A stretch of DNA of 59,681 nucleotides from Bacteroidaceae bacterium (lineage in GTDB: Bacteria; Bacteroidota; Bacteroidia; Bacteroidales; Bacteroidaceae): positions 1 through 59,681 of the forward strand of contig JAFSKR010000040.1 of the NCBI GenBank assembly GCA_017448825.1. Direction: 5' to 3'. The notes below the pieces were generated by a model. The model made no database searches, had not been told where the DNA came from, and worked only from the letters and a program-made list of their open reading frames with translations. This document shows, piece by piece, positions 591 through 59,644 of the stretch (its first letter is position 1; each line of letters begins with the position of its first letter). A program made the translations under genes and the position numbers.

Positions 591-659
591 CGACGTGCCC
601 CACACCGATTGACCGACGTGCCCCACACCGATTGACCGACGTGCCCCACACCGGTTCAT
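591..659 (+). repeat. Three 23-nt direct repeats feeding one terminator arm
   Basis: Three head-to-tail 23-nt copies start at 591, 614 and 637, each opening with CGACGTGCCCCACACCG. Copies 1 and 2 are identical; copy 3 differs at its 3' end, where it turns into the loop of the following hairpin. Each copy can pair with the single inverted arm at 660-676. Confidence 0.9.
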
Positions 660-57584: not shown

Positions 57585-57682
57585 CTAACAAATCACCACA
57601 TCACCAAACATTTTGGGAAAATTCATCACATCCCAACAAGTTCATCAATCTGCTTGTGCCCCTCAATGTTCACTCAAGTCTC

Positions 57683-57960
57683 TTGCCCCAGTCTTGTGGA
57701 GACGATGCCCAATGTATTCCCAACTCTGTTGCCAATGTCTTCCCAACTCTGTTGCCAATGTCTTCCTCGTCCTCATGCCCGTCATCTCGGAAGACTGTGC
57801 CCCGTGTCTTCCGAGTTCTCTTGCCCGTATCTTGCTCCGCCTCATGCCCGTGTCTTCCGAGTCCTCTTGCCCGTCATCACCTGGCTCCGATGCTCGTCAT
57901 CACCTGGCCCTCATGCTCGTCATCACTCCGCTCTCATGCTCGTGTCTTCCAGGGAGGTGT
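57683..57960. repeat. Degenerate 23-nt tandem repeat array (about 11-12 units)
   Basis: Units begin TGCC or TGCT, and several continue as CCCGTGTCTTCCGAGTCCT or a variant. The G of the TGC anchor falls at 57685, 57707, 57731, 57754, 57777, 57799, 57823, 57846, 57869, 57892, 57915 and 57938: steps of 22, 24, 23, 23, 22, 24, then 23 throughout. One unit carries an inverted CTCGGAAGAC (57786-57795) that pairs with GTCTTCCGAG (57806-57815). No gene is seen in 57,464-58,317. Confidence 0.85.
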
Positions 57961-58288
57961 TTCCCAAGGGAAGGGAGAAGGGGTCTCACATCACTTTTCG
58001 AAGATTCCCCGAAGTCATTACATACAATAGCGGGAAGGCAATACAACAAGAAGCCGCCACGGATTCATTTCTTTAGCGGCTAACGTGAAAAGAGGGATAG
58101 GCATTGCGCGGCAAGCAGCTCGCTTTTTCAGACAACAATAGACAATAATTGCCCAACAAATGACAATGACTTAAAGAACGTTCAAACAGCAAGTAAAAAA
58201 CAGCAAGTAAAAATGAACACAGAACATTCTTTCCACTCAGCATTACTAAATTTTTGCTCAAACAGCATTGACTTTGAGAATTTTTATG

Positions 58289-58560: not shown

Positions 58561-58950
58561 ATGATGAATAATAAAGATAAAGAAACGCCTCATTTTGTTA
58601 CATCGCACGATTTCCGCGGTGATGCGGAATATATCGCATGGCTGCAAGAAATCAAAAGACGCTATCAGCGCATCCGTTCTCGCATTGCACTTCAGGCAAA
58701 CTACAGCACATTGGAGTTCAATTGGTTGCTTGGTCGTGACCTCGTTGAAAAGAAAGCGGAACAGCGGTGGGGAGTGGGCGTTGTTGAACAGTTAAGCCTC
58801 GATATGAGGGCGGCTTATCCTGATGTCAAAGGTTTCTCATTGCGTAACCTGTGGTATATGAAACAGTGGTACCTCTTCTATCGTGGTGACACCCAACGCT
58901 TGGAAAAACTGCACCAACTTGGTGCAGAATTCATGTGGAAGTGTTTTTAG
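58561..58950 (+). pseudogene. DUF1016 (YhcG-type) gene, 3'-truncated
   Basis: 129 codons. Residues 20-122 match the DUF1016 N-terminal winged-helix region (FNWLLGRDLVEKKAEQRWG, MRAAYPDVKGFSLRNLWYMK, LHQLGAEF). Full-length members continue with a PDDEXK nuclease-like domain to about 340 residues; here the match stops at LGAEF and is replaced by MWKCF and a stop. The break coincides with GAATTC at 58927-58932. Probably non-functional, although a stand-alone DNA-binding domain cannot be excluded. Confidence 0.8.
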
Positions 58951-59272: not shown

Positions 59273-59644
59273 TTCAAAGTCGAGACTATGCCAGTCCCTT
59301 TGAGGGTGGCACAGGGCGAGACGGTGGAAATCCGCTGCTCGCTGCTGGCTGAGGGCAGGACGAGTGATACGCAGTTCACCATCCGCTGGTTTCTCTACGA
59401 CGGCAAGGGTACGCTCAAATACAACAAGAAAGCCTTGAAAGCCAACGACCGCTATCCGCTTCTGACGGAAGATTTCCGTCTGTACTACACCTCTGCATCG
59501 TCTGACTCTCACAGCTTCATCGTGGTAATAGAGGACAATCACGGACAGAGCCAGCAACTTGATTTCAAGTTTAACAATGACAATGACGAAGAGGAAACGG
59601 CAACCACAGAGAAAGGAGGGCAAGGGATTGAGAGCAGGCAATAA
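59273..59644 (+). pseudogene. traQ: Conjugative transposon protein TraQ (DUF3872), 5'-truncated
   Basis: Residues FKVETMPVPLRVAQGETVEI, TIRWFLYDGKGTLKYN, NDRYPLLTEDFRLYYTSAS and QQLDFKFNN match TraQ/DUF3872 of CTnDOT-type elements. Homology runs upstream of the first ATG (59288) to F at 59273, directly after an in-frame TAA, and the signal peptide of full-length TraQ (about 150 residues) is missing. The gene has therefore lost its 5' end. The next gene starts inside it at 59577. Confidence 0.83.

What the first reader, a model, noticed from the sequence alone, without database searches (positions are those of the whole stretch)
57683..57960. Twelve-anchor degenerate array with a strict 23-nt period
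The units vary strongly in sequence, yet the anchor spacing stays 22-24 and compensates (22 then 24, twice) to keep the 23-nt phase. That suggests selection on spacing (about 2.2 helical turns) or repeated slippage. All three forward frames are open across it because the units lack stop codons, and 23 is not a multiple of 3, so it is unlikely to be coding. One unit is inverted and forms a perfect 10-bp stem with its neighbour. It lies at the edge of an accessory region.
Basis: seen in the sequence. Interest (0 to 1): 0.72.

Follow-up and report, generated by a model that had tools for sequence, protein, structure and literature searches.

The report
Scattered DNA arrays with 23-bp ruler
The window holds one copy of a non-coding repeat element built from 23-letter units that is scattered through genomes of a group of rumen bacteria, and unrelated repeats in those genomes mostly share that unit length while related genera use 22, which hints at an unknown physical ruler.

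Summary
The array is real: lag-23 identity 0.61 against 0.28 (sd 0.03) in 2000 shuffles, with 12 steps of 23 nt. It is not unique. It is one of 14 array places found in its own genome, and 10 of 45 genomes of the genus (own included) carry such arrays. Over 66 loci, 578 of 584 steps are 23 nt, and small indels per substitution are about 6-140 times rarer than in the element's own tail. It shows no sign of coding or RNA structure, and no terminal inverted repeats. The closest known kind is BrickBuilt of Porphyromonas gingivalis; kinship could not be tested.

The surprise lies outside the coordinates. Slices of seven genomes of the genus hold 21 mutually unrelated repeat families of period 23 and 7 of period 22. 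Slices of six genomes from other Bacteroidaceae genera hold 13 of period 22 and none of 23 (p=4e-6). E. coli slices and shuffles show none at either length. Unit length looks lineage-specific and sequence-independent. I propose a physical ruler of about two DNA turns; the pattern is shown, the ruler inferred. Nine paper searches listed no report of it.

The parts
57660..57682 (+). leader unit, start of the element (...CCCTCAATGTTCACTCAAGTC)
   Evidence: In phase with the array. Leaders of other copies begin at this motif with unrelated DNA before it in several loci.
57683..57958 (+). array of 12 diverged 23-nt units in an order shared by other copies
   Evidence: same order in own-genome copies and G019, and in the more distant G034 array by eye on units.
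57786..57815 (.). 10-bp stem with 10-nt loop between two units (57786-57795 / 57806-57815)
   Evidence: Read; perfect in 8 of 14 own-genome loci and 0 of 20 G019 loci. Judged not functional.
57959..58091 (+). tail module of the element, shared with two other own-genome copies
   Evidence: Array plus tail align at 89.7% to the copy on contig C60 and 93.5% to the copy on C45, ending about 131 nt past the array.
591..653 (.). second, unrelated 23-nt tandem repeat in the same window (CGACGTGCCCCACACCGATTGAC x2.7)
   Evidence: TRF; member of repeat family 1 (6 places in the G000 slices, 2 in G025).

Best explanation
The feature is one copy of a dispersed, apparently non-coding minisatellite element: a short leader, an ordered array of 23-bp units (2-17 units chained per locus), and a tail. 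SHOWN: copies lie at many places; the same unit order is kept between G000 and G019; arrays differ by whole units at matching loci; the 23-nt step survives heavy sequence change; and 23 is also the unit length of most of the unrelated repeat families of that size in the genus, while five other genera of the family show 22 and not 23. INFERRED: the unit length is set by a physical ruler of the lineage, not by sequence. My proposal is that a replication, repair or DNA-packaging protein holds or realigns DNA about two helical turns apart, so tandem duplications are born with that step (22 or 23 bp by lineage) and later grow by in-register slippage or recombination; out-of-step indels are lost because they break in-register realignment. 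The spread of this family to new places is a separate process by an unknown route (copying of the whole element).
For: Own-genome copies: (15 matches, 11 of them 87-100% identical, itself included). Genus spread: 10 of 45 genomes, own included. Step census over 66 loci: 578 x 23, 4 x 22, 2 x 24. Indels not a multiple of 23 per 100 substitutions: array 3.2, 0.16, 0.85 and 2.0 against tail 17.8, 22.7, 28.0 and 16.0 in four comparisons. Matching arrays of G025 and G016 differ by exactly 46 nt in both pairs compared. Period survey: 35 places at 23 and 5 at 22 in seven genomes of the genus; 0 at 23 and 16 at 22 in six genomes of other genera. After merging the one pair of families that proved related, 21 families of period 23 and 7 of 22 against 0 and 13, p=4e-6; the remaining units are no more alike than shuffled units. 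0 at 23 in the other genera at each of four window sizes, and 0 shuffled hits at 22 or 23. E. coli 200 kb: 0 at 22 and 23. About 45 nt behind the gene that precedes the C13 copy, relatives L058, L060 and L070 carry a different tandem repeat whose unit I counted as 23 nt.
Against: No molecule that could be the ruler was identified. The genus is not pure: G015 shows three families of 22 and one of 23, G025 three of 22 and nine of 23, G023 one of 22 and two of 23. Other preferred lengths exist: lag 14 at 18 places and lag 21 at 19 places in the genus slices. Two-copy repeats in the genus are spread over 20-24 with most at 21, many of them heptamer or low-complexity runs by eye, so the sharp 23 shows mainly in longer arrays; selection on grown arrays is not excluded. 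Conservation of unit order and of the unit core could mean that this family has a sequence function of its own. Slices were 58-459 kb per genome, from draft assemblies for the genus; in four of the seven genomes they came from contigs already known from array hits, not picked at random.
Confidence: 0.55

Rival explanations
1. A BrickBuilt-like MITE: a non-autonomous element moved by a host transposase that binds the array or its ends; the 23-nt phase is kept because the transposase needs regularly spaced sites.
For: Same architecture (leader, 23-nt units, tail), similar copy number and apparent intergenic position as BrickBuilt (PMC4596501; own data). Clean 5' start with unrelated DNA before it in several loci. 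BrickBuilt itself has both intact inverted ends in only 4 of 19 copies, so missing ends do not exclude a decayed relative.
Against: No inverted copy of the 5' end above shuffles within 500 nt downstream in 21 loci tested (the 5' anchor was placed wrongly in four: L043, L045, L052, L053, leaving 17). The IS5-type terminal motif of BrickBuilt is absent from the own genome (0 places, exact match only). Does not explain why unrelated families share 23. Target duplications were not tested.
Confidence: 0.2
2. A protein-binding platform: units are binding sites, and selection keeps 23-bp spacing for cooperative binding by a nucleoid or regulatory protein.
For: Unit core (phases 3-15 and 20-23) is more conserved than phases 16-19 (entropy by phase). 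Small indels are rare in the array. Unit order is kept between G000 and G019 and by eye in G034.
Against: Families with no common unit share the length, which a sequence-specific binder does not explain. Neighbouring ORFs show no fixed orientation. A recalled Bacteroides-type promoter motif is not clearly denser near arrays (6 in 33.9 kb against 37 in 290.4 kb).
Confidence: 0.13
3. Ordinary slippage: an old minisatellite that happens to be 23 nt, with phase kept only because changes are whole-unit duplications or losses.
For: Whole-unit length differences are seen; tandem repeats are common in these genomes.
Against: Does not explain 21 unrelated families at 23 in the genus and 13 families at 22 in other genera, with lags 19, 20, 25 and 26 empty or at single places.
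Confidence: 0.1
4. REPIN-type element moved by a RAYT (Y1 transposase).
For: Dispersed short repeats, some with palindromic units, are how such elements look (recalled).
Against: Y1_Tnp (PF01797) has 0 matches in the own genome (85.9% complete) though 24 of 41 genomes searched have one. Units of period 23 are not palindromic beyond shuffles (combined p 0.31).
Confidence: 0.02
5. A protein-coding or structured-RNA gene.
For: Three open forward frames in the window copy; forward ORFs of 92-264 aa run through 26 of 30 loci.
Against: Variation is flat over codon positions (mean entropy 0.349, 0.369, 0.326 over 28 aligned copies) and 10 of 14 copies examined carry a stop in at least one forward frame. 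RNA folds of the window copy are no better than shuffles (z +1.23 and +0.99). No Rfam match there.
Confidence: 0.02

Closest known systems
BrickBuilt, the MITE-borne minisatellite of Porphyromonas gingivalis (Klein et al. 2015, PMC4596501; abstract, sections 5 and 8 and passages read)
   Same: 23-nt tandem units without spacers, leader and tail, imperfect units, 19 intergenic places in one genome, variable unit number, same bacterial order.
   Different: No terminal inverted repeats found here (only 4 of 19 BrickBuilt copies have both); the IS5-type end motif is absent from the own genome; BrickBuilt was reported to have no BLASTn match outside P. gingivalis, with homologues in P. gulae; sequence kinship could not be tested. 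The parts read describe one 23-nt family and a 41-nt repeat of another element, not a unit length shared by unrelated families.
Long simple sequence repeats with a preferred 7-nt unit (Mrazek et al. 2007, seen only as cited in a passage of PMC4679880)
   Same: A preferred unit length in many genomes, with polymerase contact length suggested as the ruler.
   Different: Units of 1-11 nt were considered there, 7 the commonest; here 22 or 23 nt, degenerate and lineage-specific.
Eukaryotic satellite DNA of nucleosomal length (PMC8122249, start of abstract seen in the listing)
   Same: Many satellites there have units of nucleosomal length.
   Different: Bacterial, 22-23 bp, no nucleosomes; the analogy of a packaging ruler is mine.
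REP/REPIN elements with RAYT; LTRR repeats of cyanobacteria (both recalled)
   Same: Dispersed short intergenic repeats, tandem in LTRR.
   Different: Unit lengths, no RAYT found in the own genome, units not palindromic beyond chance for period 23.

Membership tests
BrickBuilt-type MITE/minisatellite | 23-nt tandem units without spacers, imperfect | tested here: met
   578 of 584 steps are 23 nt in 66 loci.
BrickBuilt-type MITE/minisatellite | flanking leader and tail shared among copies | tested here: met
   Shared leader start and several shared tail modules; some copies lack the leader.
BrickBuilt-type MITE/minisatellite | many intergenic copies per genome | tested here: met
   14 places in G000 and 20 loci fetched from G019. 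In 30 loci the ORFs that overlap the array (26 of 30, 92-264 aa) are forward ORFs running through it; flanking ORFs stop outside or at its edge. ORF-based only, no gene caller.
BrickBuilt-type MITE/minisatellite | terminal inverted repeats like IS5-family ends | tested here: not met
   No inverted 5' end above shuffles in 21 loci (17 with a correct anchor); exact motif GAGACCTTTGCAAAA 0 times in the own genome. Note that 15 of 19 BrickBuilt copies lack one or both intact ends.
BrickBuilt-type MITE/minisatellite | target site duplications | not tested
   Relatives without the C13 array behind the same gene were seen, but the DNA beyond the gene is too diverged to read a duplication.
BrickBuilt-type MITE/minisatellite | sequence homology to the P. 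gingivalis element | not testable with these tools
REPIN/RAYT | palindromic units plus a Y1 transposase in the genome | tested here: not met
   PF01797 0 matches in G000; units of period 23 not palindromic beyond shuffles.
Protein-coding repeat | codon-position bias and an open frame in all copies | tested here: not met
   Flat entropy by codon position; stops in at least one forward frame in 10 of 14 copies examined.
Structured RNA | fold more stable than shuffles, conserved pairs | tested here: not met
   z +1.23 and +0.99 for the window copy; stem perfect in 8 of 14 and 0 of 20; no Rfam match there.

The most novel reading that the evidence does not exclude
Bacteroidaceae have a sequence-independent ruler that makes non-coding tandem repeats grow in one fixed step, 22 bp in most genera and 23 bp in this rumen genus; the finding is one member of dozens of unrelated repeat families written to that step, and the step follows the lineage of a replication or DNA-packaging protein.
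Probability: 0.4. Interest if true: 0.85.

Novelty: new variant of a known kind. Interest (0 to 1): 0.62.

Why it matters
What fixes the unit length of a bacterial minisatellite at its birth is, as far as I know, open. A unit length shared by unrelated sequences, sharp to one base, and different between sister genera points to a molecular ruler that can be looked for by comparing genera of 22 and 23. It might also bear on why BrickBuilt, in another family of the same order, has 23-nt units. In practice such arrays break assemblies (five of the own-genome places sit at contig ends) and differ in unit number between close species, so they could serve as typing markers.

Tried and rejected
Coding: flat variation by codon position and stops in other copies. 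RNA structure: the window copy folds no better than shuffles on either strand, and Rfam matches in the window are two tRNAs only. The 10-bp stem as a functional part: not kept in G019. MITE ends: no inverted 5' end in the tail. Inverted units in the tail: suggested by eye in several species; the score test has at most 34 of 200 shuffles as good in 17 of 20 loci of G025/G016/G003, G062/G013 and G034, at most 18 in 4 of 9 of G067, at most 16 in 3 of 20 of G019, and never fewer than 66 in the 11 of G000, so I do not claim it for the window. Palindromic units as the common theme: combined p 0.31 for period 23; 0.005 for period 22, driven by a few families. RAYT link: none found in the own genome. 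Mobile carriers: no match of 57600-58150 in plasmid or phage records and none in viral contigs for an exact sister-species pattern. Own 31-mer in named genomes: 0. Order-wide model search: 1 of 393 genomes, the own one, with only 12 candidates scored per genome, so its negative is weak; family search 2 of 41, both this genus. A search of E. coli with the neighbouring HMA gene gave nothing and served no purpose.

Limits of the counts: in the indel test, pairs over 30% diverged were dropped (array 0; tail 25, 99, 149 and 7 pairs in the four comparisons), pairs are not independent, and tails join different 3' modules, which inflates their indels. The step census dropped four loci that repeat others (L016, L019, L021, L117), and unit chaining penalises steps other than 23, which favours 23 somewhat. 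Contig-end places in the own genome may be halves of the same element. In the period survey, slices of G000, G025, G062 and G034 came from contigs already known from array hits; the main-family places known there were left out except the window's own. Leaving that family out gives p=4e-6 before the merge (21 and 7 against 0 and 13). Multiples of 3 were set aside as possibly coding when judging peaks; lags 44 and 46 were counted with 22 and 23 in the family table. One search printed 22 families of period 23; one search found families 22 and 23 of that list related (17 of 23 letters), so I give 21. Lag 10 in G030 (9 places) probably is an artefact, as its shuffles give 9 hits at lags that are not multiples of 3.

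Full report
What was checked. The stretch 57683-57960 is a true array: identity at lag 23 is 0.61 against 0.28 (sd 0.03) in 2000 dinucleotide shuffles, with peaks at 46, 69, 92 and 115 too. TRF sees it as overlapping rows of period 23 and 46. Scoring whole units gives 13 units in a row from 57660 with every step 23 nt. All forward frames are open.

It is a dispersed element. A search of the own genome (75 contigs, 2.95 Mb, 85.9% complete) gave 15 matches, 11 of them (itself included) 87-100% identical. I handle them as 14 array places; a further weak model hit at C58:76260 was not followed. Five places lie at contig ends (C14, C16, C21, C45, C56) and may be halves of fewer elements. The copies share the order of units, begin at one leader motif with unrelated DNA before it where the leader is present, are cut short at the 5' side in others, and run into several different tail modules. 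In the window the tail shared with two other copies ends near 58091. In 30 loci, flanking ORFs end outside the array or at its edge, while forward ORFs of 92-264 aa run through 26 of them, as a stop-poor array allows; neighbours show no fixed orientation. No match was found in plasmid or phage records, nor in viral contigs for an exact sister-species pattern.

Who carries it. By DNA, 4 of 61 genomes searched, own included. By a sequence-only model of three consecutive units, 10 of 45 genomes of the genus, own included; 2 of 41 in the family sample, both this genus; 1 of 393 in the order sample, the own genome, at low sensitivity. I take the genus to be a rumen Prevotellaceae lineage; its name was not looked up, and the rumen origin of the RUG and RUI records is recalled.

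How it changes. In 66 loci, 578 of 584 unit steps are 23 nt, although units of different species can differ much (for example G025 and G034). The array of G034 keeps the unit order of the window element at roughly 60% identity by eye. Small indels per 100 substitutions are 3.2, 0.16, 0.85 and 2.0 in arrays against 17.8, 22.7, 28.0 and 16.0 in tails, for G000, G019, G000 against G019, and G025/G016/G003 (caveats in Tried and rejected). At two locus pairs of G025 and G016 the array differs by exactly 46 nt and by no other indel inside it, apart in one pair from a leader difference at its 5' edge. That pair (L130, L133) matches on both flanks at about 96-97%; the other (L128, L132) matches upstream at 98% and in the near tail, not further downstream.

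What it is not. Not coding by these tests: entropy by codon position 0.349, 0.369, 0.326 in 28 aligned copies, and stops in at least one forward frame in 10 of 14 copies examined. Not a structured RNA by folding: z +1.23 on one strand and +0.99 on the other. No inverted ends. No Y1 transposase found in the own genome.

The wider pattern. TRF on slices showed that period 23 is common in the own genome with many different units. A lag scan on 1.21 Mb from seven genomes of the genus and 0.72 Mb from six genomes of other genera of the family gave 35 places at 23 and 5 at 22 in the genus, against 0 at 23 and 16 at 22 elsewhere (sizes; including the half- and double-period lags adds 2 at 46 and 2 at 44 in the genus, 2 at 44 elsewhere). 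Clustering by blastn gave 22 families of period 23 and 7 of period 22 in the genus, 0 and 13 elsewhere. Comparing consensus units in all rotations and both strands merges one pair (17 of 23 letters) and leaves the rest no more alike than shuffled units: 21 and 7 against 0 and 13, Fisher p=4e-6; a looser merge gives 19 and 7 against 0 and 13, p=1e-5. Of the six other genomes, five show period 22 and one (G459) shows neither. Four window sizes agree on no 23 outside the genus, and shuffles give none at 22 or 23. E. coli MG1655 (200 kb) gives none; G305 of another family gives none at these lags in the lag scans and one two-copy repeat at 23. Three genomes of the genus without a match to the window's family model (G023, G030, G015) still show period 23. 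Against a clean rule: G015 has three families of 22 and one of 23, G025 three of 22 and nine of 23, G023 one of 22 and two of 23; and lags 14 (18 places) and 21 (19 places) are also frequent in the genus.

Reading. What is shown is a dispersed minisatellite that keeps a 23-nt phase, in a genus whose unrelated repeats of about that size mostly share that length. That a ruler exists is an inference from the period pattern; that it is about two helical turns, and that it sits in replication or packaging, is my proposal. I prefer it to selection for a binding platform because the families share no unit, and to plain slippage because lags 19, 20, 25 and 26 are empty or nearly so. Two-copy repeats in other genera already sit at 22 (10 of 22 such repeats between 16 and 45 nt), which favours a ruler acting at birth; in the genus itself two-copy repeats are spread over 20-24, most at 21 (5 of 64 at 23), which does not favour it.

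Compared with what is known. BrickBuilt of P. gingivalis (PMC4596501; abstract, sections 5 and 8 and passages read) has the same plan and unit length; it has inverted ends, both intact in only 4 of its 19 copies, that I do not find here, and kinship could not be tested. So I say it looks and may work like BrickBuilt but do not file it as one. A 7-nt preferred unit with polymerase contact as the suggested cause is reported by Mrazek et al. 2007, which I saw only as cited in a passage of PMC4679880. Nine searches of the held open-licence library listed nothing on a shared 22- or 23-nt unit in these bacteria; of the listed papers I opened three (PMC4596501, PMC5771137, PMC4679880), in parts.

The family count fell from 22 to 21 and p changed from 3e-6 to 4e-6; wording on sampling, intergenic position, leader difference, stop counts and BrickBuilt ends was mended.

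Noticed in passing
591-653: Perfect 23-nt tandem repeat of unrelated sequence in the same window; its family recurs at 6 places in the own-genome slices and 2 in G025, and by eye a palindromic relative forms the tail of some array copies.
   Followed up: partly
58561-58950 and 59288-59644: Short DUF1016_N gene and a TraQ gene lacking its start right of the array, next to a small HTH_3 gene: looks like the remains of a conjugative element.
   Followed up: no
L058, L060, L070 (G016, G025, G036): About 45 nt behind the gene that precedes the C13 array copy, these genomes carry a different tandem repeat (TGCCCTGCAGCGTAATTTACTTG, 23 nt): same place, different sequence, same step.
   Followed up: partly
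genus slices L199-L238, L259-L278: Periods 14 (18 places) and 21 (19 places) are also frequent in the genus; some look like heptamer-based repeats, a second preferred length.
   Followed up: no
L116 and L117 (G067 C45 and C54): Two contigs of one draft genome hold the same array with 99.9-100% identical flanks: strain duplication or redundant binning.
   Followed up: no
L036, L037, L046, L053 tails: A terminator-like hairpin (GTAAACAAATTGCTTCGTTTAC) forms the end of one tail module and is copied with the element.
   Followed up: no
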